Shown here: piece after piece, positions 7,626 to 37,238 of the stretch
Position numbering within the stretch: position 1 is the first letter of the stretch
Layout of the letters: each line of letters begins with the position of its first letter
NCBI GenBank assembly: GCA_018780805.1
Contig: JADMJD010000168.1
Coordinates: 2,281 to 66,280 of the forward strand
Source: Rubrivivax sp.
GTDB taxonomy: Bacteria > Pseudomonadota > Gammaproteobacteria > Burkholderiales > Burkholderiaceae_C
Direction: 5' to 3'
Length of the DNA stretch: 64,000 bases
Notes under the pieces: model-generated
What the model was told of the DNA's origin: nothing
Databases searched by the model: none
The model's input: the letters and a program-made list of their open reading frames with translations, nothing else
Translations under genes and position numbers: made by a program

Positions 7626-8132
7626 ACGGTCGCCCGGGACGCAGCAGGCCTGCAGCCGCGCAAGCAGCCGAGCCAGCGCCGCGTGCACGGTCTGCTCGCG
7701 CACGGCACTGCGGTCACCGTCCAGTTGCAGGCGTTCGGCCTGTGCACCGCGGGCATCGGCCCAGGCCAGCCAGACCGTGCCCACCGGCTTGCCCGGCACC
7801 GCACCACCCGGCCCGGCGATGCCGGTGACGGCCACCGCCAGCTGCACCGGTGCGTGGGTCAAGGCCCCCCGCGCCATCGCCAGCGCGACGGGTTCGCTGA
7901 CGGCCCCGTGGGCCGCGATGAGCGCGGCGTCCACACCGAGCAAACCCGTCTTGGCCTCGTTGCTGTAGGTCACAAATCCCCGCTCGAACCAGTCGCTGGA
8001 GCCGGCCACCGCGGTGCAGGCGGCGGCGATCAGGCCGCCGGTGCAGCTCTCGGCGGTGGCCAGGCGCCAGCCGCGTGCACGCAGCGCATCGCCCAGCGCC
8101 CCCACGGCCGGCTCGAAGGCGCTCAGTGCCAT
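7617..8132 (-). CDS. pncC: Nicotinamide-nucleotide amidohydrolase PncC (CinA C-terminal type)
   Basis: Deamidates nicotinamide mononucleotide to nicotinate mononucleotide in NAD recycling. The 171-residue stand-alone CinA-C domain shows TAESCTGGL and VTGIAGPGG, both hallmarks. The start is MALSAFEPAV at 8132; a longer open frame to 8345 only runs antisense through pgpA codons. It overlaps the end of pgpA by 10 bp, so translation is probably coupled in a thiL-pgpA-pncC operon. Confidence 0.9.
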   Translation of the reverse strand: MALSAFEPAVGALGDALRARGWRLATAESCTGGLIAAACTAVAGSSDWFERGFVTYSNEAKTGLLGVDAALIAAHGAVSEPVALAMARGALTHAPVQLAVAVTGIAGPGGAVPGKPVGTVWLAWADARGAQAERLQLDGDRSAVREQTVHAALARLLARLQACCVPGDRSD

Positions 8133-8644
8133 GCCGACATCCACAAGGCCAGCAGCACCAGGGTGCAGAAGGCGGCCACCACATCGTCGAACAGGATGCC
8201 AAAGCCCTCGCGCCAGCCGATGGGCTGGCCCGGCCGCGGCTTGAAGCGCCGGTCGGCCCAGCCCACAGGCCCGGGTTTGGCCGCGTCGAAGATGCGGAAC
8301 AACACAAAGGCCACGGCCTGCGCACCCAGCCCGGCCGGCATCCACAGCCAGAGGATGAGCCAGAAGGCCAGCACCTCGTCCCAGACGATGGCGCCGGGGT
8401 CACCAATGCCCAGGTGCTGCGCGGTGCGGGTGCAGGCCCACCAGCCCACGACAAAGCCACCGGTCAGCACCAGGGCCCAGCCCACATCACCCAACCAGCG
8501 GTCCAGGATCAGAAAGCTCGCCCAGGCCCAAAGTGTGCCCACGGTGCCCGGCGCGCGCGGCGCCAGGCCGCTGCCAAAACCGAGTGCGATCCAGTGCGCC
8601 GGGTGGCGGCGGAAGAAGGCAAAGTTGAGCGTGGCGCTGGCCAT
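8123..8644 (-). CDS. pgpA: Phosphatidylglycerophosphatase A
   Basis: Inner-membrane phosphatase of 173 residues that converts phosphatidylglycerophosphate to phosphatidylglycerol. Visible motifs are GFGSGLAPRAPGTVGTL near the N-terminus, a WDEV acidic motif, RIFDAAKPGP and the C-terminal FDDVVAA, with about four hydrophobic segments. It sits between thiL (8 bp upstream) and pncC (overlapping), an arrangement common in Betaproteobacteria. Confidence 0.92.
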   Translation of the reverse strand: MASATLNFAFFRRHPAHWIALGFGSGLAPRAPGTVGTLWAWASFLILDRWLGDVGWALVLTGGFVVGWWACTRTAQHLGIGDPGAIVWDEVLAFWLILWLWMPAGLGAQAVAFVLFRIFDAAKPGPVGWADRRFKPRPGQPIGWREGFGILFDDVVAAFCTLVLLALWMSAWH

Positions 8645-8652
8645 GGGCAGGT

Positions 8653-9603
8653 TCAGGCGAAGTGGTCGAAGCCGCGCAGCTCGGCCAACACCGGCCGGCC
8701 CTGGGCGTCCACCACCCGCAGGCCGGGCCGCGCGTCGATGCTGCCGATGGGCGTGACGGCCACGCCGGCCGCCGCACCGGCGGTACGCACCGCGTCGTCG
8801 TGTGCCGGCGGCGCAGTGAACAGCAATTCGTAGTCGTCGCCCCCGGCCAGCACGCAGGTCTGCTGCCAGGCCGCGCTCTGGCGCGCCAGCACCGCGCTGC
8901 GCGGGATCGCATCGCGGTCCAGCGTGGCGCCGGTGCCCGAGGCTTTGAGCACGTGCTGCAGATCGCCGAGCAGGCCGTCGCTGAGGTCGATGGCGCTGCT
9001 GGCCACGCCGCGCAGCGTCTGCCCCAGCGCCACGCGAGGCTGCGGTGTCTCCATCGCCAGGCGCACGGTCTCGAAGTCGGCGCCCGGCAGGACCAGCGTG
9101 CCGCGGAAGACCTCCAGCGCCAGCCGTGCATCACCCAGCGTGCCGCTCACCCAGAGCCGGTCGCCGGCGCGCGCACCGCGGCGCAGCAGGGCCTGGCCGA
9201 CCGGCACCTCGCCAAAGGCCGTGATGCAGATGTTCAGCGGCCCGGCCGTGGTGTCGCCACCCACCAGCTCGATGCCGTATGCACTGGCCAGGCGGTGCAG
9301 GCCGAGCGCAAAGCCGCGCAGGAAATCACGGTCCACCTTGGGCAGTGCCAGTGCCAGCGTGAAGGCCAGCGGGCGCGCCCCACAGGCCGCGAGGTCGGAC
9401 AGGTTCACCGCCAGCGCCTTGTGGCCCAGGCGCTCTGGCGCGACGGTGGACAGGAAGTGCCGGCCTTCGACCAGCATGTCACTGGACACGGCCAGATGCT
9501 GACCTGCAGCGGGCGCGAACAGCGCGCAATCGTCGCCCACGCCCAGCGTGGCCCGCTGCACCGGCCAGCTGAAGTACTCGGCAATCAGGTCGAATTCACC
9601 CAT
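8653..9603 (-). CDS. thiL: Thiamine-monophosphate kinase
   Basis: Phosphorylates thiamine monophosphate to thiamine diphosphate, the last step of cofactor synthesis. The 316-residue protein shows the AIR-synthase-like fold motifs: GDDCALF, LSDLAACGARP, VGGDTTAGP, LSDGLLGDL and GGDDYELLF. It is the first gene of thiL-pgpA-pncC and is divergent from the histone-like gene across 61 bp. Confidence 0.94.
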   Translation of the reverse strand: MGEFDLIAEYFSWPVQRATLGVGDDCALFAPAAGQHLAVSSDMLVEGRHFLSTVAPERLGHKALAVNLSDLAACGARPLAFTLALALPKVDRDFLRGFALGLHRLASAYGIELVGGDTTAGPLNICITAFGEVPVGQALLRRGARAGDRLWVSGTLGDARLALEVFRGTLVLPGADFETVRLAMETPQPRVALGQTLRGVASSAIDLSDGLLGDLQHVLKASGTGATLDRDAIPRSAVLARQSAAWQQTCVLAGGDDYELLFTAPPAHDDAVRTAGAAAGVAVTPIGSIDARPGLRVVDAQGRPVLAELRGFDHFA

Positions 9604-26316: not shown

Positions 26317-27069
26317 TCAGAGGTTCTCGTGGTGCCCGGCGTTGCCCGGTTTCCAGTAGGCCGCCGCGCGGATGCGCTCCTTCGGCAGGCCGTGGGTGCC
26401 CACCAGCACCGCGCGCACGGCGGCCGTGACGCTGGCTTCACCGGCGGCCCAGGCGTAGCCCTCTCCGGGCGGCAGCGTCAACGCCTGCACGGCCGCGGGC
26501 AGGTCGGCCGTGATCCACTGCAGATTCACGTTGGCACGGCTGGGCAGCGCCCGCTGCTCGGCCGCATCGGCCAGCACACGCACGATGGCGGTGCAAGCTG
26601 CGGGCAGCTCTTCCAGCCGCCGGGTGATGGCCGGCAGCGCAGACAGGTCGCCCACCAGCAGGTGCCAGTCGAAATCCACCGGCACGACGAAGGAACCGCG
26701 TGGCCCGCCGATCTGCACCGTCTGCCCCGGGGCGGCCTGCGTGGCCCAGGTGGCGGCCGGGCCGTGGCCGTGCAGCGCAAATTCGATGTCCAGCTCGTCG
26801 CCGCTGAAACGACGCGGTGTGTAGTCACGCATCACCGGCGGCTCGCCGGGCAGGATGAGCTTGACGTGGTCGTCGAAGGACAGGCTGATGAAGTCCTGCA
26901 ACTCCGGGCTGGTGAAGGTGATGCGCAGCAGGTGCGGGCTCAGCAACGCGGTGCGGCGCACGGTGAGCGTGCGCCGCTTGAGTTCGTGGCGCACCCGTTG
27001 CACGGTGCGGACCGGGGAGTCAGTGACAGGATTCAAGGATGGTTCTGTTTGGTTGATAATGTCCACCAT
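26317..27069 (-). CDS. Siderophore-interacting protein (ViuB/YqjH-like flavoreductase)
   Basis: Flavin-dependent ferric-siderophore reductase of about 250 residues. The SIP FAD domain shows PPVMRDYTPRRFSGDELDIE and GPAATWA, and the C-terminal SIP domain shows LLVGDLSALPAI and the YAWAAGEASV segment near the end. ATG 27069 overlaps the divergent MarR start; a GTG further inside the frame is possible. It probably releases iron from an imported ferric chelate. No receptor or TonB gene is nearby. Confidence 0.88.
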   Translation of the reverse strand: MVDIINQTEPSLNPVTDSPVRTVQRVRHELKRRTLTVRRTALLSPHLLRITFTSPELQDFISLSFDDHVKLILPGEPPVMRDYTPRRFSGDELDIEFALHGHGPAATWATQAAPGQTVQIGGPRGSFVVPVDFDWHLLVGDLSALPAITRRLEELPAACTAIVRVLADAAEQRALPSRANVNLQWITADLPAAVQALTLPPGEGYAWAAGEASVTAAVRAVLVGTHGLPKERIRAAAYWKPGNAGHHENL

Positions 27070-27100
27070 GATGCCGGACACTGTAGACAAAGTCAACCAA
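27049..27100. promoter_or_regulatory. Inverted repeat spanning both divergent start codons
   Basis: The 18-mer TTGGTTGATAATGTCCAC at 27049-27066 is repeated in inverted form at 27083-27100, with 14 of 18 positions identical; the outer 8 bases are perfect. The centre lies at the overlapping ATG codons of the SIP gene and the marR gene. This fits a dimeric MarR regulator binding two sites and controlling both promoters. Confidence 0.6.
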
Positions 27101-27538
27101 CGACACGCAGCACCCAGCGCACTCGACCTGATGCACACGCTGATGCACCGGATCAAGCGGCGCATGCAGCAGGCCACCCAGGTCGCCAGCGAGGCCGAGG
27201 GCATCGCGCTGACGCCGATGGAGGCGCGCACGCTGGGTTTCTACGCGCGCCACCCCGGCGCCACGGCGCAGGACCTGGTGGAACACGCCGGCCGCGACAA
27301 GGCGCAGGTGGCGCGGTTGATCAAGAGCCTGGTGGAACGCGGCCTGCTGGCCGCGGCCACCGACCCGCAGGACCGTCGGCGCCAGACGCTGCAGCTCACG
27401 CCGGCGGGCAAACGTTTCGAGCGGCGCATGGCGGTGGCGCGGCAGCAGGTCGAACGTGCGGTGATGGCGGGGGTCTCGGCGGAAGAGGCCGAGGTGCTGC
27501 GGCGCTGCCTGGGGCAGATGGTGGCGGCGCTGGACTAA
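27068..27538 (+). CDS. MarR family transcriptional regulator
   Basis: Regulator of 156 residues from ATG 27068; other possible starts are 27059, 27071 and 27131. Helix-turn-helix and wing: RHPGATAQDLVEHAGRDKAQ then LIKSLVERGLLAAATDPQDR. It is divergent from the siderophore-interacting protein gene and overlaps its start codon, so it almost certainly regulates it, perhaps in response to iron or oxidative stress. Its stop overlaps that of the convergent EamA transporter. Confidence 0.87.
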   Translation: MMPDTVDKVNQRHAAPSALDLMHTLMHRIKRRMQQATQVASEAEGIALTPMEARTLGFYARHPGATAQDLVEHAGRDKAQVARLIKSLVERGLLAAATDPQDRRRQTLQLTPAGKRFERRMAVARQQVERAVMAGVSAEEAEVLRRCLGQMVAALD

Positions 27539-28431
27539 GGGCGGCGCAGCTCCGCCCGTATCACCACCGCCAAGCCCGCCAGCACTGCCAGCAGCCCCAG
27601 CAGCGCCCACATCCCGGGCCGCTCACCGACGATGAGCACGGCCAGCGCAAACGCCGTCACCGGCTCGGCCAGCGCCAATGCCACCGCGGTGGCGCCGCTG
27701 ATGTGCCGCAGCGCATGGCTGAAGAGCAGGTAGGCCACGCCGGTGCTCATCACACCCAGCCAGGCGACGATGACCAGGTCGCTGGTCTGCAGCAACGGGG
27801 GGCCGGCCAGTGCCCCCGCCACCGGCAGCGCCAGCAGCGCGGCACCGCTGAACACGGCCCCGGTCACGGCGCCGGCCGAGGCACCCGAGACCAGGCCCTG
27901 GTTGACCAGCGCGTAAACCGCGTAGGACAAACCCGCCAGCAGGCACAGGCCCACACCCAGCGGGGTGAAGGGCAGCGTGTGGCTGCCGCCGGCGATCATC
28001 AACGCGCCCCCGCCCACGGCCAACGCGGTGCCGGCCCACCAGGTGGCGCTGGGCGGGCGGCGCTGCATCACCGCCTGCAGCACACCCGCCCAGACCGGCC
28101 CGCTGCCCAGGGCGATGGCGGTGCCCACGGCCACGCCGCTGGCGCGCACGCCGGCAAAAAACGCCAGGTTGTAGGCGCTCATGCACACCGCCGCCAGCGT
28201 GATGCCACGCCACGGCAAACCACCCAGCGCGGCCGGCGCCAGCGCGCGGCGCTCGGTGGCGGCCAGCCAAGCCGCAAAAAAAACGCCGGAGGCCACCAGC
28301 CGCAAGGCCCCCACCCAGTAGGACGACAACTGCGCCGGCGCCAGGCTCTGCGCCGTGCCGGTGGTGCCCCAGAGCAACGCAGCCCCCAGCACCAGGGCCA
28401 CGCCGCGCAAGGGAGAAATTGCCGGTGTCAT
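27535..28431 (-). CDS. EamA/DMT family transporter
   Basis: Inner-membrane protein of 298 residues with ten hydrophobic segments in two EamA repeats. The start MTPAISPLRG at 28431 is followed by GAALLWGTTGTAQSL, typical of the first EamA helix, and the second repeat carries LLFSHALRHISGATAVALAL. Probably exports an amino acid or other metabolite; substrate unknown. Convergent with marR (4-bp overlap) and upstream of nothing obviously related. Confidence 0.88.
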   Translation of the reverse strand: MTPAISPLRGVALVLGAALLWGTTGTAQSLAPAQLSSYWVGALRLVASGVFFAAWLAATERRALAPAALGGLPWRGITLAAVCMSAYNLAFFAGVRASGVAVGTAIALGSGPVWAGVLQAVMQRRPPSATWWAGTALAVGGGALMIAGGSHTLPFTPLGVGLCLLAGLSYAVYALVNQGLVSGASAGAVTGAVFSGAALLALPVAGALAGPPLLQTSDLVIVAWLGVMSTGVAYLLFSHALRHISGATAVALALAEPVTAFALAVLIVGERPGMWALLGLLAVLAGLAVVIRAELRRP

Positions 28432-28500
28432 GCCACGGTGCCGCACACAGGGCGGCAGGGACTTGTCGAGCGGCGCTCGTCCGTCAGCCGCGGCGGCCCA

Positions 28501-28836
28501 TCAAGCCGGTGCGCGACCGGCACGTCCTGGCAGCAGTGCAAGACGTCGGCGGGCAAACCCAATGAATGCATGCACCGCACTGTACGTGGGCCGGGTGCAG
28601 GCGACCCCGGCACTGAACTCGGCCGCGCCGCCCAGCGTGCCCAGCACGGCCGGGGCCGCGCTGCTGAAGCAATGGTGCTGGCCGGGCCCGAGCTCGATGT
28701 CCTCGGGCTGGCCGTCCACCGTCACCCACAGCGTGCCGCGGCGCACCTGCACACACAGGCCACGAGGGCGTTGCAGCGTCAGGAACTGCGCGCGCTGCAG
28801 CAGGACACGGGGCATCACATCGGTCTTGGCATGCAT
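28501..28836 (-). CDS. DUF2917 family protein
   Basis: Protein of 111 residues from ATG 28836, which has an AAGGA site at good distance; ATG 28845 is too close to it. The core VRRGTLWVTVDGQPEDIELG then GQHHCF is the cupin-like DUF2917 signature. Function unknown. It is divergent from a LysR gene, an arrangement seen in other Burkholderiales, which suggests LysR control. Confidence 0.75.
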   Translation of the reverse strand: MHAKTDVMPRVLLQRAQFLTLQRPRGLCVQVRRGTLWVTVDGQPEDIELGPGQHHCFSSAAPAVLGTLGGAAEFSAGVACTRPTYSAVHAFIGFARRRLALLPGRAGRAPA

Positions 28837-28939
28837 GGCAGTCATCCTTGCAGGAACAGGTCTGAGCATGGCACGATGATCGGCGCCGGATCCCTGGGCT
28901 TCAAACGATGATTTGGCACACCTCACATTCCGCCAGCGC

Positions 28940-29953
28940 ATGCCAAACCGTTTGCCCCCGCCCGATCTGCTGATCGCCTTCGAAACGGCGGCTCGCCACC
29001 TGTCCTTCACCAAGGCGGCAGCCGAGCGGTTTGTCACGCAGTCGGCCGTGAGCCGGCAGATCGCGCAGCTGGAGGCTCACCTGGGCGTGCCGCTGTTCGA
29101 GCGCCGCCACCGTGCGCTGCAGCTCACCGACGATGGTGTGCAACTGGCCGAGGCGGTGCGCCAGTCGCTGGCGCTGCTGCACGCGTCGGTGGACCGCATC
29201 CGCCTGCAGGCGCGTCGCGAGGTGCTGTCGTTGACCACCACGCCGGGCCTGGCGTCCTTGTGGCTGATCCCGCGCCTGGCCGACTTCCTGGCCGCGCACC
29301 CGGGTGTGGACGTGCGCATCGACGCCACGCTGGAGCGCCGCCAGCTGGGCGCCGACGGCATCGACCTCGCGATCCGCTACATGGCGGTGGACCCGTCGGT
29401 GGGCGACGCGCTGTTCGACGAAACCCTGCAGCCGGTCTGCGCGCCCGCGCTGCTGCGTGACCGCCAGCGCCCATTGCGCCGGCCGGCCGACCTGCAGCGG
29501 CACACGTTGCTGAAGATCGCCGCCCCGCTGGGCGCCAAGCAGATGCCCAACGAATGGCAGTCGTGGTTGACGGCGGTCGGCGCGGCCCAGGTGCAGCCGG
29601 CCGCGCTGCTGAGTTTCAACGCCTACGACGCGGCGGTGGCCGCCGCGGTGGCTGGCCAGGGTGTGCTGCTGGGGCGCCGGCCGCTGGTGGACCCGCTGCT
29701 GGCACGGGGTGAGCTGGTCACCCCGTTCCCCGAAGGCCTGGTCTCGGCGCGGGCCTATGTGGTGGTGGTCGACGAACGCGCCGCACGCCGGCCCGCGGTG
29801 CAGGCCTTGCGCCAGTGGTTGCTGGCGCAGAGCCGGGTCATGGCGCCGCCGACGACATCACCAGCGGCACCGCCGTCAGCGCCTGCAGCGCGTCCAGCGT
29901 CAAACCGCCGCACAGCGCGCGCACCCACGCCTGCCCGCCACGCAGCTCGATGA
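28940..29953 (+). CDS. LysR family regulator (GcvA-like) with run-on C-terminus
   Basis: Regulator of 337 residues from ATG 28940 (MPNRLPPPDLLIAFETAARH). Helix-turn-helix: HLSFTKAAAERFVTQSAVSR. The effector domain has the GcvA-type LASLWLIPRL and the AAVAGQGVLLGRRPLVDP segment. A normal LysR would end near WLLAQSR (about 29840); here the frame runs on for some 37 Ala/Pro/Arg residues antisense to the downstream CoA-transferase gene. This looks like a lost stop codon. It may regulate the divergent DUF2917 gene or the CoA-transferase operon end. Confidence 0.88.
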   Translation: MPNRLPPPDLLIAFETAARHLSFTKAAAERFVTQSAVSRQIAQLEAHLGVPLFERRHRALQLTDDGVQLAEAVRQSLALLHASVDRIRLQARREVLSLTTTPGLASLWLIPRLADFLAAHPGVDVRIDATLERRQLGADGIDLAIRYMAVDPSVGDALFDETLQPVCAPALLRDRQRPLRRPADLQRHTLLKIAAPLGAKQMPNEWQSWLTAVGAAQVQPAALLSFNAYDAAVAAAVAGQGVLLGRRPLVDPLLARGELVTPFPEGLVSARAYVVVVDERAARRPAVQALRQWLLAQSRVMAPPTTSPAAPPSAPAARPASNRRTARAPTPARHAAR

Positions 29954-30488
29954 CGGCCAGCTCGGTGTAGACCCGGCTCACGCAGCCCAGCCCGGTGAGC
30001 GGGTAGCTGCAGGCCGGCACCAGCTTGCTGTCCCCGGCCTTGCTGCGGTGTTCCATCATCACCCAGGTCTGTTTGGCGCCGATGGCCAGGTCCATCGCGC
30101 CGCCCACCGCCGGGATGGCGTCGGGCGCGCCGGTGTGCCAGTTGGCCAGGTCACCCTGGATCGACACCTGGAAAGCGCCGAGCACACACACGTCCAGGTG
30201 GCCGCCACGCATCATCGCGAAGCTGTCGGCGTGGTGGAAGAAACTGCCGCCGGGTTGCAGCGTCACCGGCTGTTTGCCGGCGTTGATGAGGTCGTAGTCC
30301 TCGTCGCCCGCGGCCGGCGCCGGGCCCATGCCGATGACACCGTTTTCGCTGTGCAGGACCAGCTCGCGCCCGGCCGGGATGTGGTTGGCCACCAGCGTGG
30401 GCAGGCCGATGCCCAGGTTGACGATGGCGCCGTCGAACAGGTCCTGCGCCACCAGCTGGGCGATCTGGTCGCGGGTCCAGGGGGTCAT
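29838..30488 (-). CDS. 3-oxoacid (3-oxoadipate-type) CoA-transferase subunit B
   Basis: Beta subunit of 216 residues that, with subunit A, moves CoA from succinyl-CoA to a 3-oxo acid. The active-site Glu is in LVLHSENGVIGMGP; other family segments are NLGIGLPTLVAN, PGGSFFHHADSFAMMRGGHL and DLANW. Closest pattern is PcaJ/CatJ, with ScoB as an alternative. Its 3' end is overlapped by the convergent LysR frame. It is the last gene of a long minus-strand catabolic operon. Confidence 0.9.
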   Translation of the reverse strand: MTPWTRDQIAQLVAQDLFDGAIVNLGIGLPTLVANHIPAGRELVLHSENGVIGMGPAPAAGDEDYDLINAGKQPVTLQPGGSFFHHADSFAMMRGGHLDVCVLGAFQVSIQGDLANWHTGAPDAIPAVGGAMDLAIGAKQTWVMMEHRSKAGDSKLVPACSYPLTGLGCVSRVYTELAVIELRGGQAWVRALCGGLTLDALQALTAVPLVMSSAAP

Positions 30489-30501
30489 GTCGACCCCTCG
30501 T

Positions 30502-30571
30502 CCGCGGTGTACCGCGGCCGATCCTCCGGGGGGATCGAACCCGGCTTCGGGCGGCCGTGCGCTCGGGTTCG
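30502..30571. repeat. Three consecutive hairpins between CoA-transferase subunit genes
   Basis: The 93-bp spacer between the A and B subunit genes holds three stem-loops: CCGCGG-TGTA-CCGCGG (30502-30517), CGATCC-N7-GGATCG (30519-30537), and CGAACCCG-N20-CGGGTTCG (30536-30571), the last with a nested CCCG-GCTT-CGGG. Such subunit genes normally overlap or nearly touch, so this looks like an inserted palindromic unit or an mRNA processing/stabilising element. Confidence 0.65.
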
Positions 30572-30581
30572 TGTCGCCATG

Positions 30582-31283
30582 TCAGGCCGCCTTGCTGAAA
30601 CCAGCGCCTTGCGTGGCCCGGCGCGGCACACACACCACACGCTGTACGAAGAGACCAGGCGTGACCACGGCCTCCGGGTCCAGCGTGCCCAGCTCGACCA
30701 GCTCATGCACCGTGGCGATGGTGGTCTTCGCGGCCATCGCCATGATGGGCCCGAAGTTGCGTGCCGTCATGCGGTAGGTCAGGTTGCCCCAGCGGTCACC
30801 CCGTTCGGCCTTGATCAACGCCACGTCGGCGTGCAGTGCGGTCTCAAACACCTGCATGCGGCCATCCAGTTCGCGCACTTCCTTGCCTTTGGCGAGCTCG
30901 GTGCCATAGCCCGTGGGCGTGAAAAAACCGCCGATGCCGGCGCCGGCGGCGCGGATGCGTTCGGCCAGGTTGCCCTGGGGCACCAGTTCCAGTGCCAGCC
31001 GGCCGGCGCGGTAGGCGCGGTCGAAGTGCCAGGAGTCCACCTGGCGCGGGAAGCTGCAGATGACCTTGCACACACGCCCGGCGGCTATCAGCGCGGCCAG
31101 GCCGGTGTCGCCGTTGCCGGCGTTGTTGTTGACGACGGTGAGGTCCTTGGCGCCCTGGTCCAGCAGCGCTTCGATCAGCTCGTCGGGCAGGCCGGCGGTG
31201 CCGAAGCCGCCGATCATCACGGTGGCGCCGTCTGGCACGTCGGCCAGTGCGGTAGCGGGGGTGGCGACGATCTTGTTGATCAT
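30582..31283 (-). CDS. 3-oxoacid (3-oxoadipate-type) CoA-transferase subunit A
   Basis: Alpha subunit of 233 residues. Recognisable segments: GATVMIGGFGTAGLPDELIE, VVNNNAGNGDTGLAALI, CSFPRQVDS and GTELAKGKEVRELDG. The pattern is that of PcaI/CatI in the beta-ketoadipate pathway, but ScoA is similar. Together with subunit B it would form 3-oxoadipyl-CoA or acetoacetyl-CoA. No thiolase (pcaF) gene is adjacent. Confidence 0.9.
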   Translation of the reverse strand: MINKIVATPATALADVPDGATVMIGGFGTAGLPDELIEALLDQGAKDLTVVNNNAGNGDTGLAALIAAGRVCKVICSFPRQVDSWHFDRAYRAGRLALELVPQGNLAERIRAAGAGIGGFFTPTGYGTELAKGKEVRELDGRMQVFETALHADVALIKAERGDRWGNLTYRMTARNFGPIMAMAAKTTIATVHELVELGTLDPEAVVTPGLFVQRVVCVPRRATQGAGFSKAA

Positions 31284-31315
31284 GGGCTCTCACACCAGGG
31301 CTGCGAAGCCCTGCA

Positions 31316-31843
31316 TCATGCCTGCGGCCACGCCCGGAACAGCGTGCGGCGGGTGTCGCGAAAGGCCGGCCGCACACGGCTGCTCCAGGGTGTGGCGCGC
31401 ACCGCCAGCCAGGGCGGGCTGTTGAAGGCGGCACGGTCGGCCAGCCCATAAAACGCGTGGTACAGCGGGCCCTGGCCATCGCTGCGCTGCAGCCGGCGCG
31501 CCTGCACCACGCCGGGCACGGCGGCCAGGCCGGGCAGGTGCTCCTGGCTGTACCAGGCGTTGAAGTCGGCCTCCACCTCGGGCAGCACATTCGTCTCCAC
31601 CACGTAGAGCCACGGCGCGGGCTGGCCCGCCGCAGGCCCGTCGATGACCAGCGTGGCCTGCAGCGGCACCGCTTCCAGGCCGGCGGGGCAGATGGGCAGC
31701 GGCGCCGCGCCTGCGGGCAGCAGGCAGCGGCGCTGTGTGCCGGTGTCCACATCGGTCCAGTGCGGCCACTGGGGCGCCGGTGGCAACGCTGCCCAGCCGG
31801 GCAGATCCGCGGCGCCGCGGTACAGCCATTCGGTGCCGGCCAT
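31316..31843 (-). CDS. Dimeric alpha-beta barrel domain protein
   Basis: Protein of 175 residues from ATG 31843. The C-terminal part (LYVVETNVLPEVEADFNAWY, then SQEHLPGLAAVPGVVQARRL) resembles EthD/antibiotic-monooxygenase-like dimeric barrels; the N-terminal half is unassigned. It overlaps the upstream decarboxylase-like gene by one base (TGATG), so it is translationally coupled. Within the catabolic operon it may be a decarboxylase, lactone-handling or ring-modifying accessory enzyme; this is inference. Confidence 0.68.
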   Translation of the reverse strand: MAGTEWLYRGAADLPGWAALPPAPQWPHWTDVDTGTQRRCLLPAGAAPLPICPAGLEAVPLQATLVIDGPAAGQPAPWLYVVETNVLPEVEADFNAWYSQEHLPGLAAVPGVVQARRLQRSDGQGPLYHAFYGLADRAAFNSPPWLAVRATPWSSRVRPAFRDTRRTLFRAWPQA

Positions 31844-32364
31844 CAGTGCACGTCCAGCGCGACCAGCAGGCGCGACACCATGTTGTAGGCCGCCACCGTG
31901 GTGACCAGCTCCACCAGACCACGTGCGTCGTAGGCCTGCTGCAGCGCTGCCATCAGCGGCGGCGGCACGGTGATGTCGCGTGTCATCGCATCGGTGAGCG
32001 CCAGCACCTGCTGTTCGCGATCGCTGAACAGCGCGCACGGCTGCACTGCGCGCACGGCCTCGATCTGCGCGGCGGACAGGCCGGCTGCCAGCGCATGCGG
32101 CACATGCGCCTCGAACTCGAAGCTGGCGCGGTTGAGCACCGCCACGCGCAGGATCACCAGCTCGCGCAGGTCGGCCGGTACGGTGGTCTGCTGCCGCACG
32201 GCGGTGAGCAGCTGCTCCCAGCCCGCAGCGATGGGCGCGCTGTTCAGCAGCACCTGGTAGAGCAGCGACACCCGGCCACGCGCGGCCATCAGCCGGGCTT
32301 CGGTGGCGGCCAGCTCCGGCCGGGTGCCGGGCTCGACCAGCGGAACGCGGGGCACGGTCTTCAT
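31843..32364 (-). CDS. Carboxymuconolactone decarboxylase/AhpD-like family protein
   Basis: Helical protein of 173 residues with the CMD-family segment LRELVILRVAVLNRASFEFE followed by AHVPHALAAGLSAAQIEAV. The redox CxxC of AhpD peroxidases is absent, so a peroxidase role is unlikely and a lyase/decarboxylase-like or structural role fits better. It lies 7 bp downstream of a Bug protein gene and overlaps the next gene. Confidence 0.85.
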   Translation of the reverse strand: MKTVPRVPLVEPGTRPELAATEARLMAARGRVSLLYQVLLNSAPIAAGWEQLLTAVRQQTTVPADLRELVILRVAVLNRASFEFEAHVPHALAAGLSAAQIEAVRAVQPCALFSDREQQVLALTDAMTRDITVPPPLMAALQQAYDARGLVELVTTVAAYNMVSRLLVALDVH

Positions 32365-32371
32365 GCGGCGG

Positions 32372-33334
32372 TCACTCCGCCTTGATGCCCTTGGCCTTGA
32401 TCAGCCGGGCCCATTTGTCGGTGTCGCTCTTCAGCAGCGTTGCCAGCTCCTGCGGCGTGGTGGGCCGCGGGTCGGCGCCGGAGGCCAGCAGCTTGTCGCG
32501 AACGGCCGGCGTGCTGAGCGTCGCACGCACGGCCTTGTTCAGCGCTTCCACCACCGCCGGCGGGGTCTTGGCCGAGACGAAGAAGGCGTACCAGTTCACC
32601 GTGTCCACGCCGCGGATGCCCTGCTCCTCCAGCGTGGGCACCTCGGGCAGCGCCGGGTGGCGTTTGGGCGCGGCAATGCCCAGGGCCTTGAGCTTGCCAC
32701 CCTTGACCTGGCCGATCAGGCCCGGCACATCGCCGAAGAATCCACCCACCTGGCCGCCCATCAGGTCGGTGATCGCCGGTGCCGCGCCCTTGTACGGGAT
32801 GTGGGTGAACTTGCCGCCGGTGCTGTCGGCCAGCTGCTCGATGGCCAGGTGCGGGATGCTGCCGATGCCCGACGAGGCCATCGACACGCCCTGCGCGCTG
32901 GTCTTGCTGCGCGCCACGAAGTCGGCCGCGCCGCGCGCCGGGTCGTTGTTGTTGACGACCAGCAACTCGACGTTGTCCACCACCACGGACACCGGCGCAA
33001 AGTCGCGCAACATGTCGTAGGGCAGCTTGTCGTAGAGCGCCGGGTTGATGGCCGCGGCGCCGACGCTGGTGATCCAGACCGTGCGGCCATCGGGCGGTGC
33101 GCGCAGCACCTCCATCGCGCCGATGGCGCCGTTGGCCCCGGGTTTGTTTTCCACCAGCACGGCGGTGCCCAGCTCCTTGCCCAGCTGCTCCATCAGCGTG
33201 CGGGCCACGGCGTCCACCGGGCCACCGGGTGTGAACGAGACCACGATGCGGGTGGGTGGTGCGGTCTGCGCGTGCAGCAGCGGTGCGGCGGCCAGCAGCA
33301 GGGCGGCGGTGATCCAGTGGCGGCGAAGTGTCAT
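32372..33334 (-). CDS. Bug family (TctC) periplasmic solute-binding protein
   Basis: Periplasmic binding protein of 320 residues with a signal peptide ending LLHAQ. Family motifs: RIVVSFTPGGPVDAVAR, NKPGANGAIG, HIPYKGAAPAI and PEVPTLEEQGI. No TctA/TctB membrane components nearby. It sits inside the aromatic-type operon and probably recognises the operon's substrate or a related carboxylate. Confidence 0.92.
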   Translation of the reverse strand: MTLRRHWITAALLLAAAPLLHAQTAPPTRIVVSFTPGGPVDAVARTLMEQLGKELGTAVLVENKPGANGAIGAMEVLRAPPDGRTVWITSVGAAAINPALYDKLPYDMLRDFAPVSVVVDNVELLVVNNNDPARGAADFVARSKTSAQGVSMASSGIGSIPHLAIEQLADSTGGKFTHIPYKGAAPAITDLMGGQVGGFFGDVPGLIGQVKGGKLKALGIAAPKRHPALPEVPTLEEQGIRGVDTVNWYAFFVSAKTPPAVVEALNKAVRATLSTPAVRDKLLASGADPRPTTPQELATLLKSDTDKWARLIKAKGIKAE

Positions 33335-33357
33335 CGTTTGTCTCCAGGGGGTGTTGT

Positions 33358-34158
33358 TCAGTCGCAGCGCGCGGTCATGCCGCCGTCGACCACGATCTCG
33401 GTGCCGGTGACGAAGCGGGCGTCGTCACTGGCCAGGTAGGCCACGGCCGCGGCGGTGTCGCGCCCGTCGCCCATGAAACCCAGCGGGATGCGTTTCTGGC
33501 GCTGCGCCAGCAGCGCGGCGGCGTCACCGCCCGCGCGCTGGCCGGCCAGGCGGGCTTCGACCATCGGCGTGTGCAGCTGGCCCGGCACCACGGTGTTGAC
33601 GCGGATGCCCTGCGCCGCGTGCTGCACGGCGACCACACGCGAGAGCTGGATCACCCCCGCCTTGGTGGCGGCGTAGGCCACCTGGGCGCTGCCCGTCCAG
33701 CGCTGGCCGGAGGTGGAGGCCAGGTTGACGATGGCGCCGCGGCCTTGCGCCATCATCACCGGCAGCACGTGTTTGCAGCCCAGGAAGACACTCTTGAGGT
33801 TCAGGTCCACCTGGCTGTGCCAGACGGCTTCGTCCATCTCCACCGGCCCGCCGGGGGCCGAGCCGCCGACGTTGTTGACCAGCACGTCGATGCGGCCCAG
33901 CGCGGCCTGGCAGGCGGCCACCATCGCCGCCAGCGCGGCCGAATCGGTGACGTCGCAGGCCCAGGGGTGGATGGCAGCCCGGGTGTCGCCGGCATGTGCC
34001 AGCGTTTCGTCCAGCCGCGCGGCGTCGCGGTCCACCGCCCAGACCTGGGCGCCTTCTTCCGCCAGCCGCACGGCGATCGCCCGGCCATTGCCCCAGCCGG
34101 GGCCCACGCAGCCGGCCCCGGTGACGATGGCCACGCGGCCTTCAAAACGACGGGTCAT
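33358..34158 (-). CDS. Short-chain dehydrogenase/reductase
   Basis: NAD(P)-dependent oxidoreductase of 266 residues. Cofactor motif VTGAGCVGPGWGNG (an unusual long glycine loop), NNVGG, catalytic Ser in NLASTSGQ, and YAATK as the YxxxK pair. The start MTRRFEGRVA at 34158 overlaps the upstream stop in ATGA. Probably oxidises a hydroxy or diol intermediate of the operon's pathway; the substrate is unknown. Confidence 0.9.
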   Translation of the reverse strand: MTRRFEGRVAIVTGAGCVGPGWGNGRAIAVRLAEEGAQVWAVDRDAARLDETLAHAGDTRAAIHPWACDVTDSAALAAMVAACQAALGRIDVLVNNVGGSAPGGPVEMDEAVWHSQVDLNLKSVFLGCKHVLPVMMAQGRGAIVNLASTSGQRWTGSAQVAYAATKAGVIQLSRVVAVQHAAQGIRVNTVVPGQLHTPMVEARLAGQRAGGDAAALLAQRQKRIPLGFMGDGRDTAAAVAYLASDDARFVTGTEIVVDGGMTARCD

Positions 34159-34988
34159 GCCAGGTCTCCAAATCGGTACAGGCGCGCCGGGTTGTGCACC
34201 AGCAGGCGCTGCAACGCCTCGGCCGTGGGGGCGATGGCGCGGGTCAGGTCGGCGAGCTGGGCATCGTCCGGCAGCGGGCCCGCGTGGTTCGGGTGCGGCC
34301 AGTCGTTGCCCCAGAGCACGCGGTCGCCGCACTCGGCCACCAGCTGGCGCGCCAGTGGCTGGGCGTCGGCATACGGTGGGCCGGCGCGGCTGATGCGGTC
34401 CAGGCCACTCACCTTGACCCAGAACCGGGGGTTGTCCAGCAGGCGCCGCAGGGCCTGGAAGTGCGCGCCTTGCGGGCCTTCGGCAGCGTCGATGCGGCCG
34501 ATGTGGTCGATCACCACCGGCACCGGCGCGTCGCGCAGGGCCTGGGCCACGTCGCCCAACACCAGCGCCGGGTCGCCGTGCAGCTGCAGGTGCCAGCCCA
34601 GCGGCGCCAGGCGTCTGGCGAGTGTCTGCAGGTCAGCCACCGGCATGGCGCGTCCCAGGTGGCCCATGAAATTGAAGCGCACGCCGCGGAACCCCGCCGC
34701 GTCCAGACGCCGCAGCTCGGACTCGGGCACGTCGGGGCGCAGCAGCGCGATGCCCCGGTAGTCGCGCGGGCGGCCGGCCACGGCGTGTTCCGTCACGCGG
34801 TTGTCGAAGCCGTGGCAGGTGGACTGCACGACCACGCAGCGCTGCAGGCCCAGCGCATCGTTCAGCGCGTAGAGCGCTTCACGCGGCGCATCCTCGGCCG
34901 GCACGAAGGGGGCATCCGCGGCGTACGGGAACTGCAGGCGCGGGCCGAAGACATGGCAATGTGCGTTGCAGGCGGCGGGCAAATTCAT
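34155..34988 (-). CDS. Amidohydrolase-family lactonase, LigI-like
   Basis: Protein of 277 residues closely patterned on LigI, the 2-pyrone-4,6-dicarboxylate hydrolase of the protocatechuate 4,5-cleavage pathway. Shared segments: NAHCHVFGP, VVVQSTCHGFDNR, GFRGVRFNFMGHLG, VVIDHIGR and VLWGNDWPHPN. The His and Asp residues expected for lactone hydrolysis are therefore present. It is the first gene of the minus-strand operon, divergent from a LysR gene. No ligABC, ligJ or ligK gene is in the window, so the real substrate may be another lactone. Confidence 0.85.
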   Translation of the reverse strand: MNLPAACNAHCHVFGPRLQFPYAADAPFVPAEDAPREALYALNDALGLQRCVVVQSTCHGFDNRVTEHAVAGRPRDYRGIALLRPDVPESELRRLDAAGFRGVRFNFMGHLGRAMPVADLQTLARRLAPLGWHLQLHGDPALVLGDVAQALRDAPVPVVIDHIGRIDAAEGPQGAHFQALRRLLDNPRFWVKVSGLDRISRAGPPYADAQPLARQLVAECGDRVLWGNDWPHPNHAGPLPDDAQLADLTRAIAPTAEALQRLLVHNPARLYRFGDLA

Positions 34989-35035
34989 GGGCCGCAGTGT
35001 GGCCGCAGGCGCCCACGCCGGGCAGAGCCAGGGCA

Positions 35036-35048
35036 CATAGCAGCTATG
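35036..35048. promoter_or_regulatory. Candidate LysR operator
   Basis: Perfect palindrome CATAGC-A-GCTATG in the 70-bp spacer between the LigI-like operon and the divergent LysR gene, 11 bp before the LysR ATG. AT-rich dyads in this position are typical LysR-type autoregulatory and activation sites. Confidence 0.55.
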
Positions 35049-35058
35049 CTCTGAGGCT

Positions 35059-35946
35059 ATGGATCTGGTCCGCCTCCAAGGGTTTGTCGCGATTGCCGAC
35101 ACCGGCAGCTTCAGCCGCGCAGCGGCGATGCTGAACCTGTCGCAACCCAGCTTGAGCCGGCAGATGGCCACGCTGGAAGCCGAGCTGGGCCAGCGCCTGC
35201 TGGACCGCACCGGCCGCGGCGCCGCGCCGACCGAGGCCGGCCTGCTGCTGCTGGACCACGCCCGCGCACTGCTGGACCGCGCCGAACGTGCCCGCACCGA
35301 GCTGCGCGAGCTGCAGGACAGCCCGGGTGGCCGTGTCACCGTGGGCCTGCCGCCGCGTGTGGCACTGGGCCTGAGCGTGCCGCTGGTGCATGCCTTCCGC
35401 GCGCGTTTTCCGCGCGCCGTGATCACGGTGCTGGAGGGCCTGAGCGCCGCGCTGCGCGAATCGATGATCGCCGGCCGGCTGGACCTGGCCCTGCTGTTCG
35501 ACCCGCCACCCGCGCCGCAGATCCGCTGCGAGCTGCTGATGCGCGAAACGCTGCAGCTGGTGGCGCCACCGGGCAGCCGGCTGCCGCCGCGCGTGGCGCT
35601 GGCGGCCTTGCCGCAGTACCCGCTGGTATTGCCGAGTGCGCCCAACGCGATCCGCGCGCTGCTGGACCGTTGCCTGGCGCCGCGCGGCATCGTGCTCAAC
35701 GTCGCGGCCGAAGTGGGCGCGGTGGGCACGGCGCTGGCCCTGGTGGCGCGGGGTGAAGGCTGCAGCGTGCTGCCCACCAGCGCGCTGAGGGCCGACCCGG
35801 CCCATGCCGCGTTGCCACAATCACCCATCGGCCCGCCTGCCATCCGCAACCAGCTGGTGCTGGCCACGCCGGTGGCGCGCCCGGCCTCTCGGCTGCTGCG
35901 CGAGACAGCGCAGCTGCTGCGCACGCTGGACTTCCGGCAAGGTTGA
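35059..35946 (+). CDS. LysR family transcriptional regulator
   Basis: Regulator of 295 residues. Helix-turn-helix: TGSFSRAAAMLNLSQPSLSR. The effector domain resembles the Nac/CbbR-like group (VGLPPRVALGLSVPLV; SMIAGRLDLALLFD). Divergent from the LigI-like/SDR/Bug/CMD/CoA-transferase operon with a palindrome between them, so it is the likely activator of that operon. The isomerase gene follows 42 bp downstream on the same strand. Confidence 0.92.
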   Translation: MDLVRLQGFVAIADTGSFSRAAAMLNLSQPSLSRQMATLEAELGQRLLDRTGRGAAPTEAGLLLLDHARALLDRAERARTELRELQDSPGGRVTVGLPPRVALGLSVPLVHAFRARFPRAVITVLEGLSAALRESMIAGRLDLALLFDPPPAPQIRCELLMRETLQLVAPPGSRLPPRVALAALPQYPLVLPSAPNAIRALLDRCLAPRGIVLNVAAEVGAVGTALALVARGEGCSVLPTSALRADPAHAALPQSPIGPPAIRNQLVLATPVARPASRLLRETAQLLRTLDFRQG

Positions 35947-35988
35947 GGTGATCGCGTCAGAATCGGCGGCCACCACCGGGAGCCGCGC

Positions 35989-36585
35989 ATGACCGTCGAC
36001 TACTACTTCACCCCCGTCTCGCCCTGGGCCTACCTGGGCCATGCGCGCTTCGTGCAGCTGCTGCAGGACACTGGCGCCGCGGTGAACGTGCGCCCGGTGG
36101 ACTACGGCGCGGTCTTCCCGGTCTCCGGCGGCCTGCCGTTGCCCAAACGTGCACCGCAGCGCCAGGCCTACCGGCTGGTGGAACTGCAGCGCTTCAGCGC
36201 GCACCTGGGGCTGCCACTGACCCCGCAGCCGGCGTTTTTTCCCGTTGCGGGCGACCCGGCAGCGAAGCTGATCATCGCCACCGACCGGGCACAGGGCGCG
36301 CTGGTGGCGCTGGACCTGGCCGGCCGTGTGGCGCGCGCCATCTGGGCCGAAGAACGCAACGTGGCCGATGCCAGCGTGCTGGGCGCGTTGCTGGCCGAGG
36401 CCGGCCTGCCGGCGGCATTGCTGGACGCCTCTGGCAGCCCGGCCGTGGCCGAGGTTTATGCCGGCTACACGCAGCAGGCCATCGATGCCGGTGTTTTTGG
36501 CGCGCCCAGCTACGTGATCGACGGTGAGATCTTCTGGGGCCAGGACCGGCTGGATTTTGTCGAGCGGCGGCTGAAAAAAGCCTGA
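35989..36585 (+). CDS. 2-hydroxychromene-2-carboxylate isomerase family protein
   Basis: DsbA/GST-kappa-like protein of 198 residues that uses glutathione in the NahD family. N-terminal YYFTPVSPWAYLGHARFVQL and C-terminal VFGAPSYVIDGEIFWGQDRL match HCCA isomerases of naphthalene-type pathways; the active-site Ser is in the SPW motif. No other naphthalene genes are present, so it may isomerise a different aromatic intermediate. Probably cotranscribed with the LysR gene. Confidence 0.88.
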   Translation: MTVDYYFTPVSPWAYLGHARFVQLLQDTGAAVNVRPVDYGAVFPVSGGLPLPKRAPQRQAYRLVELQRFSAHLGLPLTPQPAFFPVAGDPAAKLIIATDRAQGALVALDLAGRVARAIWAEERNVADASVLGALLAEAGLPAALLDASGSPAVAEVYAGYTQQAIDAGVFGAPSYVIDGEIFWGQDRLDFVERRLKKA

Positions 36586-36596
36586 TCCGCCACCGG

Positions 36597-37238
36597 CTAA
36601 CCGTTGCGCAGCAGGTTGGCCAGCTCGACCGCCGACTTCACGTTCATCTTGTCAAACACCCGCGCGCGGTGCACCTCCACCGTGCGCACGCTGATGCCCA
36701 GCTGATCGGCGATCAGTTTGTTGGGCCGGCCTTCGACCACCAGCCGCATCACGTCCTGTTCGCGGTCGGTCAGCTCGGCCAGCAAGCGCTTCACACCCGC
36801 CGTACCACGCCGCGCCAGCAGTGTCGTGGCGCTCTGCTCCAGCGCGCGCTCCACGCGGTCCACCAGGCCGTTGTTGGAAAACGGCTTCTCGACAAAATCG
36901 AAGGCGCCGCGTTTGACCGCAGCCACCGCGGTGGGCACGTCGCCATGGCCGGTGAGGAAGATCACCGGCAGCGCCGGCAGCAGCCCGCCGTCGGCCAGGC
37001 GCTCGAACAGCACCAGGCCGCTGGTGCCCGGCATGCGCACGTCCAGCACCAGGCACGAAGGTGCTGCCGGCCAGGGCTGTGGCAGCTGGGCCACATGCGC
37101 CTCGAAGGCCTCGGCGCTGCTGAAACCTTCGGACAACAGACGGCGCGAGCGCAGCAGCCAGGCCAGGGCATCGCGCACCACGTCTTCGTCGTCAACAAGG
37201 TAGACCACGGGCAGGCCGAGTGAAGGGTCGAGGTTCAT
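36597..37238 (-). CDS. FixJ/DctR-type response regulator
   Basis: Regulator of 213 residues with an N-terminal receiver (VYLVDDEDVVRDAL, phospho-Asp in LDVRMPG, Lys in VEKPF) and a C-terminal LuxR helix-turn-helix (LTDREQDVMRLVVEGRPNKL then GISVRTVEVHRARV). It overlaps the histidine kinase stop in an ATGA junction, so the pair is coupled. By similarity to DctSR it may control C4-dicarboxylate use; the divergent malic enzyme gene supports this but is indirect. Confidence 0.9.
   Translation of the reverse strand: MNLDPSLGLPVVYLVDDEDVVRDALAWLLRSRRLLSEGFSSAEAFEAHVAQLPQPWPAAPSCLVLDVRMPGTSGLVLFERLADGGLLPALPVIFLTGHGDVPTAVAAVKRGAFDFVEKPFSNNGLVDRVERALEQSATTLLARRGTAGVKRLLAELTDREQDVMRLVVEGRPNKLIADQLGISVRTVEVHRARVFDKMNVKSAVELANLLRNG

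What the first reader, a model, noticed from the sequence alone, without database searches (positions are those of the whole stretch)
29838..34988. Catabolic operon mixing 4,5-cleavage and ortho-cleavage aromatic pathway parts
One minus-strand run joins a LigI-like lactonase, an SDR, a Bug binding protein, a CMD-like protein without redox Cys, a dimeric-barrel protein and PcaIJ-like CoA-transferase subunits. Known pathways use LigI with LigJ/LigK, and PcaIJ with PcaF/PcaD; here the partners are absent. Overlaps (ATGA, TGATG) argue that it is a single unit with a divergent LysR. This may be an undescribed route for a lactone-forming aromatic or muconate-type acid.
Basis: partly seen in the sequence, partly recalled or inferred. 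Interest (0 to 1): 0.75.

Follow-up and report, generated by a model that had tools for sequence, protein, structure and literature searches.

The report
Conserved lactone-acid catabolic operon
A bacterial gene cluster shared by many Burkholderiales probably imports an unknown ring-shaped (lactone) acid, opens and oxidises it, and feeds the product into a well-known energy pathway; the end point is fairly clear, the starting compound is not.

Summary
The genes are there as described, and they form a real, conserved unit. A core of LigI-like lactonase, NAD-type SDR and CMD-like protein recurs in Beta- and Alphaproteobacteria; in the window's family it is often the operon lactonase-SDR-Bug-CMD-barrel with a divergent LysR. 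A palindrome, ATAGCTGnTAT, lies in 31 of 32 unique divergent gaps (shuffle mean 0.67). A slightly wider form occurs at only two places in the 5.18 Mb genome (reversed control: none); the second precedes a Bug and alpha/beta-fold gene pair, a likely regulon member.

The "4,5-cleavage plus ortho-cleavage mix" is not supported. The genome has a separate lig cluster with its own LigI paralog. The window lactonase keeps LigI's hydrolytic residues and Arg124 but has His at Arg130 and Tyr156. PcaIJ is an optional module; in Agrobacterium sp. T29 the CMD-SDR-lactonase core lies beside PcaI, PcaJ and PcaF.

Best reading (inferred): a route from a lactone acid to 3-oxoadipate. The lactonase opens it, the SDR oxidises the hydroxy acid, PcaIJ plus an unlinked PcaF finish. 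Substrate and roles of CMD, barrel and alpha/beta proteins are unknown. My paper searches listed no description of this operon.

The parts
34155..34988 (-). LigI-like lactonase (COG3618/Amidohydro_2), 277 aa; first gene of the operon
   Evidence: Amidohydro_2 161.6 bits; LigI 4d8l 232.7 bits; H10, H12, H162, D229, R104, R198 kept; H at LigI R130 and Y156
33358..34158 (-). Classical SDR dehydrogenase, 266 aa, Asp at the end of beta2 (NAD type)
   Evidence: adh_short_C2; 65-84% identical in the related loci of the clade; D43, N95, N120, S148, Y162, K166 identical in 58 of 58 aligned; only PDB hit at E <= 1e-45 is 5jc8, putative SDR
32372..33334 (-). Bug/TctC periplasmic solute-binding protein
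   Evidence: TctC 217 bits; best PDB hit terephthalate-binding protein 8hka
31843..32364 (-). CMD-like (AhpD-fold) protein without redox Cys; E68, E83, H87
   Evidence: CMD 46.1 bits; alignment of 23; E/E/H and no CxxC also in 9 of 9 diverse members aligned
31316..31843 (-). Tandem ferredoxin-like (dimeric alpha-beta barrel) protein, 175 aa
   Evidence: AlphaFold2 pLDDT 92.9; Foldseek PDB 3mcs E 2e-7; invariant W97, Y98, E101, H102 in 19 aligned
30582..31283 (-). PcaI-type 3-oxoacid CoA-transferase subunit A
   Evidence: TIGR02429 368.7 bits; 69.5% identical to PcaI of a pcaHG/IJF cluster (L132), 43.6% over 78 aa to the genome's own truncated SCOT-like subunit
29838..30488 (-). PcaJ-type 3-oxoacid CoA-transferase subunit B; last gene of the run
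   Evidence: TIGR02428 285.5 bits, cut-off 243.55
35037..35047 (.). Predicted LysR operator ATAGCTGCTAT (read on the minus strand), inside a 15-bp inverted repeat 35035-35049 (6 of 7 pairs)
   Evidence: ATAN5TAT in 31 of 32 unique divergent gaps, shuffle mean 0.67, max 3; ATANCWGNTAT at only two places in the genome
35059..35946 (+). Divergent LysR-family regulator, with orthologs in many of the related loci
   Evidence: HTH_1 and LysR_substrate; 46-69% identical LysR neighbours listed; divergent from the lactonase or SDR gene in 34 related rows, 3 of them duplicates; L048 is not divergent

Best explanation
It is a LysR-controlled operon for uptake and breakdown of a lactone-forming acid to 3-oxoadipate. 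Inferred steps: (1) the Bug protein captures the acid in the periplasm; (2) the LigI-like lactonase opens the lactone without metal, using the His-x-His pair, His162 and Asp229, and holds one carboxylate with Arg104; (3) the NAD-type SDR oxidises the freed hydroxyl to a ketone; (4) the resulting 3-oxo diacid (3-oxoadipate or a close relative) is loaded onto CoA by PcaIJ here, and cleaved by the PcaF coded on another contig. In species without PcaIJ, an ADP-forming acyl-CoA ligase with an enoyl-CoA hydratase may take over step 4. The CMD-like protein, barrel protein and alpha/beta-fold protein of the regulon probably act before or beside step 2 (decarboxylation, isomerisation or protonation); that is a guess. 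The simplest substrate that fits is 4-carboxymethyl-4-butanolide (lactone of 3-hydroxyadipate) or an unsaturated relative. Shown: gene content, conservation, operator, residue changes, PcaIJF linkage in a relative. Inferred: every chemical step and the substrate.
For: Order and LysR conserved: of 23 family loci fetched around the best barrel matches, 15 have the five genes lactonase-SDR-Bug-CMD-barrel in this order and 11 of these also the divergent LysR; similar order in the named loci. Family survey: SDR clade in 22 of 298 other genomes (E <= 1e-80); barrel at E <= 1e-13 in 24 of 298; 21 genomes have both. Lactonase within 1.5 kb of that SDR in 18 of 22; of the other four, one has it elsewhere in the operon (L084), one on another contig with the remaining genes (L092), one is at a contig end, one has none within 1.5 kb. 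Operator in 31 of 32 gaps; two sites in the own genome, none for the reversed control pattern. Lactonase relatives >= 50% identity: H at LigI 130 in 52 of 55 and at 156 in 54 of 55; R124, H180, R217, D248 in 55 of 55; the C142 paralog beside LigK keeps Y49/R130/Y156. CMD-SDR-lactonase-IclR-PcaI-PcaJ-PcaF in Agrobacterium sp. T29. In Thiomonas L056 PcaIJ-LysR is divergent from the lactonase operon, with sites about 60 bp ahead of the lactonase. PcaI type. PcaF 719 bits, cut-off 597. SDR catalytic residues and NAD-type Asp in 58 of 58.
Against: PcaIJ is near only 5 of 65 SDR-clade rows (five of those rows are short repeats of genomes already listed), so the drain to 3-oxoadipate rests on the window, Curvibacter L048, Thiomonas L056, L084, L097 and Agrobacterium T29, plus L095 which has barrel-PcaIJ without SDR or lactonase hits. 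In Thiomonas the site is about 930 bp from pcaI. The roles of R124 and R130 in LigI are recalled; the paper was not readable. No metabolite evidence. CMD and barrel are conserved but not needed in the simple scheme. In 8 relatives the stricter site pattern gave 28 strand matches but its reversed control 17 (0 in 2 genomes, up to 7 in one), so most extra sites there may be chance: of 14 further regions fetched, 2 (both from one genus) showed the Bug-alpha/beta pair. The site is not ahead of the core in the Massilia, Burkholderia, Caballeronia, Martelella, Paraburkholderia, Agrobacterium or Cupriavidus loci checked. Terminator-like stems on the minus strand lie inside pcaI and pcaJ (6 in the region on both strands, shuffles 1.4 +/- 1.3). 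PcaF lies beside PobA, so it may serve another route.
Confidence: 0.45

Rival explanations
1. The core operon (lactonase-SDR-Bug-CMD-barrel) has its own product, which enters metabolism through CoA ligases and beta-oxidation enzymes; PcaIJ downstream in the window is a loosely attached neighbour.
For: PcaIJ near only 3 of 33 well-flanked loci while ACS/ECH genes are near 9 of 33; Martelella has an acyl-CoA dehydrogenase, two acetate-CoA-ligase-family proteins and a hydroxyacyl-CoA dehydrogenase downstream; 93-nt gap between PcaI and PcaJ; terminator-like stems inside pcaI and pcaJ.
Against: PcaIJ stands next to the same core in at least three layouts (window/L048/L084/L097 downstream; Thiomonas on the other side, divergent; Agrobacterium T29 with PcaF), which is unlikely for mere neighbours.
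Confidence: 0.25
2. Unsaturated-lactone variant: the lactonase makes maleylacetate or a similar enone, as 4-sulfomuconolactone hydrolase does, and the SDR and/or barrel protein acts as reductase/isomerase before PcaIJ.
For: The only NCBIfam model hit is 4-sulfomuconolactone hydrolase, 196 bits against a cut-off of 500; the C142 LigI paralog scores 201 with it, so the model does not discriminate. 4-sulfocatechol route precedent; lactone isomerases with a CoA-transferase in the mml operon.
Against: No maleylacetate reductase or PcaB gene in the operon; SDR has the NAD-type Asp in 58 of 58, which suggests oxidation.
Confidence: 0.15
3. Sugar-lactone pathway of the L-fucose type: an SDR oxidises a sugar to a lactone and a COG3618 lactonase opens it.
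For: SDR plus COG3618 lactonase is the known pair in fucose-type routes (titles and abstracts listed; the pairing itself is recalled).
Against: Lactonase scores 229-233 bits with LigI chains against 97-114 with the other structures hit (2ffi, 4i6k, 4mup); PcaI-type transferase, and Bug, dicarboxylate-symporter or TRAP transporters in relatives, point to organic acids; no sugar gene seen in the operon.
Confidence: 0.1
4. One reading: the lactonase is a working 2-pyrone-4,6-dicarboxylate hydrolase serving protocatechuate 4,5-cleavage, plus an ortho-pathway transferase.
For: LigI is the closest solved structure.
Against: A LigI paralog with the full Y49/R130/Y156 set lies in the lig cluster of the same genome; 52 of 55 relatives have His at 130 and 54 of 55 at 156; no lig partner gene in the window operon.
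Confidence: 0.05

Closest known systems
LigI, 2-pyrone-4,6-dicarboxylate hydrolase (PDB 4d8l)
   Same: Same family and hydrolytic residues (HxH, H180, D248), R124 and R217
   Different: R130 and Y156 are His and Y49 is Phe; no LigJ/LigK partners in the operon
4-sulfomuconolactone hydrolase and the 4-sulfocatechol route
   Same: A hydrolase of this family used in an ortho-type route towards maleylacetate (PMC5632844, passages); only NCBIfam model hit
   Different: 196 bits against cut-off 500; no PcaH2G2, PcaB2 or maleylacetate reductase in the operon
mml (4-methylmuconolactone) operon of Cupriavidus/Pseudomonas reinekei
   Same: LysR, lactone isomerases, lactone hydrolase, 3-oxoadipate-type CoA-transferase MmlFG (PMC6449761, passages)
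   Different: No SDR or CMD-like protein is named in the passages seen; sequences were not compared
beta-ketoadipate (pca) lower pathway
   Same: PcaIJ, and PcaF elsewhere in the genome; PcaF adjacent in Agrobacterium sp. T29
   Different: No PcaH over cut-off in the genome; different enzymes lead to the 3-oxo acid

Membership tests
LigI / PDC hydrolase | COG3618-type sequence with HxH, H180, D248 | tested here: met
   H10, H12, H162, D229
LigI / PDC hydrolase | Carboxylate contacts R124 and R130 plus Y49/Y156 (roles recalled) | tested here: not met
   R104 kept; H110, H137 and F28 at positions 130, 156, 49
LigI / PDC hydrolase | Encoded with LigJ/LigK/LigAB | tested here: not met
   LigK, a LigJ-like protein and an extradiol dioxygenase subunit are on C142 with another paralog
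LigI / PDC hydrolase | Hydrolysis of PDC | not testable with these tools
   Needs purified enzyme
4-sulfomuconolactone hydrolase (NF042924) | Score over curated cut-off 500 | tested here: not met
   196 bits
PcaIJ, 3-oxoacid CoA-transferase | TIGR02428 and TIGR02429 over cut-off | tested here: met
   285.5 and 368.7 bits; both are subfamily models that do not fix the substrate
PcaIJ, 3-oxoacid CoA-transferase | 3-oxoadipate as substrate | tested here: inconclusive
   69.5% to PcaI in a pca cluster against 43.6% (78 aa) to a truncated SCOT-like subunit
PcaC-type CMD | CMD domain, no CxxC, Glu-x3-His (PcaC motif recalled) | tested here: met
   46.1 bits; E83-x3-H87; 9 of 9 diverse members aligned
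PcaC-type CMD | PcaC equivalog assignment | tested here: not met
   Only YciW-like 41.9 and peroxid_rel 20 bits, both far below cut-off; decarboxylase activity not testable here
Classical NAD(P) SDR | N-S-Y-K catalytic residues and cofactor motif | tested here: met
   58 of 58 aligned
mml lactone pathway | MmlI/MmlJ isomerases | not tested
   No Mml sequences were compared; the barrel fold alone is too general

The most novel reading that the evidence does not exclude
An undescribed catabolic regulon of Burkholderiales: a LysR protein and its ATAGCTGnTAT operator control a LigI-derived lactonase, an NAD-SDR, a Cys-free CMD enzyme, a tandem barrel enzyme and an alpha/beta-fold protein whose nucleophile is replaced by Ala. 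Together they would turn a natural lactone acid into 3-oxoadipate by chemistry that none of the known ortho or meta pathways uses, with CMD, barrel and Ala-elbow proteins as new cofactor-free lyases or isomerases.
Probability: 0.25. Interest if true: 0.75.

Novelty: new variant of a known kind. Interest (0 to 1): 0.5.

Why it matters
If right, it adds a new entrance to the 3-oxoadipate pathway in Variovorax and relatives, and gives testable functions to families with poor annotation (COG3618 lactonases, Cys-free CMD proteins, tandem barrels, Ala-elbow alpha/beta proteins). The conserved operator helps to define the regulon in genomes that carry this LysR type, and the shared core makes the unknown substrate findable with a small panel of lactones.

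Tried and rejected
Rejected: (a) LigI/PDC reading, by residues and by the separate lig cluster. (b) PcaIJ as an essential partner, since most relatives lack it. (c) The DsbA/HCCA-isomerase-like gene at 35989-36585 as a member: it was a query and hit only the window's own region (L001). (d) A tRNA remnant in the 93-nt PcaI-PcaJ gap: ARAGORN found none in 27000-37000. (e) Sigma-70 consensus promoter: none found in 29500-35200. (f) Barrel as a known enzyme: no PDB sequence hit at E <= 1, and the fold matches are to several functions. (g) Riboflavin/lumichrome and cambialistic monooxygenase papers: in the passages seen they cite the LigI paper, and the lumichrome pyrone hydrolase is cobalt-dependent. 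(h) Class-wide SDR survey: none in 368 other genomes at E <= 1e-70, but at most 7 candidates per genome were scored.

Limits: most loci were found with the lactonase as bait and those with the barrel as bait, so those genes are present there by construction. The SDR-baited surveys are the less biased test. Of the 12 plasmid SDR hits at >= 62% identity, 9 were fetched (4 of them through earlier lactonase hits), and 9 of 9 have a lactonase and a CMD protein; 3 of the 12 were not fetched. Three duplicate gaps were dropped before the 32-gap count. Before, L075, L076, L078, L082, L101 and L134 were dropped as duplicate, fragmentary or the window itself, and L001-L033 were not in that database. The operator pattern was shaped on the same gaps that it was counted in; the genome scans test it independently, with a clean control in the own genome but not in the relatives (28 matches against 17 for the reversed pattern). 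LigI residue roles, the AhpD spacing, the PcaC motif, the LigJ label and the fucose pairing are recalled.
Full report
OBSERVATION. The seven minus-strand genes lie at 29838-34988 as described: lactonase 34155-34988, SDR 33358-34158, Bug 32372-33334, CMD 31843-32364, barrel 31316-31843, PcaI 30582-31283, PcaJ 29838-30488, with a LysR gene divergent at 35059-35946. Family searches agree. Lactonase-SDR (ATGA) and CMD-barrel (TGATG) overlap; the barrel-PcaI gap is 32 nt and the PcaI-PcaJ gap 93 nt. The CMD protein has no redox Cys. The barrel protein has no trustworthy sequence family, but a confident model (pLDDT 92.9) with a tandem ferredoxin-like fold.

CONSERVATION. A scan of genome contigs with the lactonase found 41 loci. 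In Variovorax, Caldimonas, Curvibacter, Thiomonas and others the order lactonase-SDR-Bug-CMD-barrel recurs, mostly with the LysR gene beside it; in Azohydromonas the Bug-barrel part lies apart. In 299 genomes of the window's family, a close SDR is in 22 of 298 others and a barrel match at E <= 1e-13 in 24 of 298 (68 of 299 have some match at E <= 0.001); 21 have both. Three other genomes of the same genus have neither, so the unit is patchy. Of 23 loci fetched around the best barrel matches, 15 have the five genes in this order and 11 of them the divergent LysR too. Within 1.5 kb of the SDR the lactonase is present in 18 of 22; one more has it at the other end of the operon, one on a different contig with the other genes, one is at a contig end and one has none within that distance. 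Beyond this form, Massilia and Burkholderia/Caballeronia loci have DctA-CMD-SDR-lactonase plus alpha/beta proteins, Martelella has TRAP-GST-CMD-lactonase-SDR followed by acyl-CoA enzymes, and three Cupriavidus loci have CMD-SDR-Bug-lactonase-SMP30. So lactonase, SDR and CMD form the core; transporters and CoA enzymes change.

REGULATION. I extracted 35 gaps between the LysR gene and the divergent lactonase or SDR gene. After removing three duplicates, 31 of 32 contain ATAN5TAT (mostly ATAGCTGnTAT); 200 dinucleotide shuffles gave a mean of 0.67 and at most 3. In the window the site is at 35037-35047. A genome-wide scan for ATANCWGNTAT found two places in 5.18 Mb and none for the reversed control. 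The second place, contig C36, lies ahead of a Bug gene and an alpha/beta-fold gene. In eight relatives the pattern ATAGCWGNTAT gave 28 strand matches and the reversed control 17, so extra sites there are weak evidence on their own. Of 14 further regions fetched, two, from two genomes of one genus (G078, G183), have the site ahead of the same Bug and alpha/beta pair (57-63% identical alpha/beta proteins); the other 12 do not. In some Variovorax loci the alpha/beta gene is beside the LysR gene and has a site of its own (L039, L103), and L104 and L038 show a site ahead of separated alpha/beta-Bug-barrel or Bug-barrel genes; the site was not found ahead of the core in the Massilia, Burkholderia, Caballeronia, Martelella, Paraburkholderia, Agrobacterium and Cupriavidus loci, whose LysR neighbours are more distant. 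The alpha/beta proteins and their homologues all have G-H-A-x-G where the nucleophile should be (24 of 24 aligned rows, the own protein counted three times).

THE LACTONASE IS NOT A SPARE LIGI. The genome has a lig cluster on contig C142 with a class III extradiol dioxygenase beta subunit (559.8 bits, cut-off 317; its score with the protocatechuate 4,5-dioxygenase model is below that model's cut-off), a LigJ-like amidohydrolase (label recalled; only Amidohydro_2 was hit), LigK (413 bits, cut-off 304.5) and a LigI paralog. That paralog keeps Tyr, Arg and Tyr at LigI positions 49, 130 and 156. Among 55 relatives of the window lactonase (>= 50% identity), position 130 is His in 52 and 156 is His in 54, while R124, H180, R217 and D248 are kept in 55 of 55. 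As I recall the LigI structure paper (not readable), R130 and R124 each bind one carboxylate of PDC. One of the two is gone here, which suggests a lactone with one carboxylate. This is inference.

WHERE THE ROUTE ENDS. The CoA-transferase is PcaI-like: 69.5% identical to PcaI in a pcaHG/pcaIJF cluster (L132), and 43.6% over 78 residues to the truncated SCOT-like subunit of the same genome. PcaIJ stands next to the core downstream (window, L048, L084, L097), on the other side and divergent (Thiomonas L056, where the sites lie about 60 bp ahead of the lactonase and 930 bp from pcaI), or with PcaF (Agrobacterium sp. T29, L128: CMD-SDR-lactonase-IclR-PcaI-PcaJ-PcaF). L095 has barrel-PcaIJ but no SDR or lactonase hit. 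PcaF is in the window's genome on another contig, beside PobA; no PcaH passes the cut-off. Of 33 well-flanked SDR-clade loci, 3 have PcaIJ and 9 have acyl-CoA ligase/enoyl-CoA hydratase genes nearby. Terminator-like stems inside pcaI and pcaJ and the 93-nt gap leave open whether pcaJ is always co-transcribed.

MECHANISM. I propose: uptake by Bug; lactone opening; NAD-dependent oxidation by the SDR (catalytic residues and NAD-type Asp43 in 58 of 58 aligned); CoA transfer; thiolysis by the unlinked PcaF. CMD (Glu68, Glu83, His87, no Cys), barrel and alpha/beta proteins have no assigned step. The simplest substrate is the lactone of 3-hydroxyadipate or an unsaturated analogue. I put 0.45 on the general route and well below that on any one substrate.

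LITERATURE. I read passages of PMC5632844, PMC12746152, PMC10811679, PMC8222616, PMC6449761 and PMC9115942; all else was seen as search listings only. PMC8222616 names COG3618 and COG3181 among COGs associated with aromatic metabolism in regulons of IclR regulators. The library is open-access papers only, so absence is weak evidence.

VERDICT. The "mixed pathway" idea is replaced by a single predicted route from a lactone acid to 3-oxoadipate. The substrate is the open question.

Noticed in passing
L099 (contig C36:7000-24000), about 7693-9080: A second CMD-lactonase pair with a LysR gene ahead of it lies on the contig that holds the second operator site; its lactonase keeps HxH, R124, H180 and D248 but not Y49, R130, Y156 or R217.
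   Followed up: partly
L099 1-1078 (-): The gene divergent from the Bug-alpha/beta pair at the second operator site looks like a class III CoA-transferase (recalled from its sequence, no family search); it might share the regulation.
   Followed up: no
L074 9660-10544, L099 2167-2967 and homologues: Alpha/beta-fold proteins with G-H-A-x-G at the nucleophile elbow in 24 of 24 rows: the nucleophile is replaced by Ala while a downstream Asp and His remain.
   Followed up: partly
window 28913-29953 (+): A second, convergent LysR gene (closest to the GcvA model, below its cut-off) whose Pro/Ala-rich 3' end overlaps the end of pcaJ by 116 nt on the other strand.
   Followed up: no
window 30489-30581: An unusually long 93-nt gap between pcaI and pcaJ with a T-arm-like GGTTCGATCCC string; no tRNA was found.
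   Followed up: partly
window 30246-30262 and 30927-30950 (-): Terminator-like stems inside pcaJ and pcaI; six such sites in 29500-35200 on both strands against 1.4 +/- 1.3 in shuffles.
   Followed up: no
window 35989-36585 (+): DsbA/HCCA-isomerase-like gene after the LysR gene, not found beside the operon in related loci.
   Followed up: yes
L084, L095, L097: Barrel-PcaI-PcaJ is kept in small (2.3-2.6 Mb) genomes of the family; in L095 the SDR and lactonase hits are missing.
   Followed up: no
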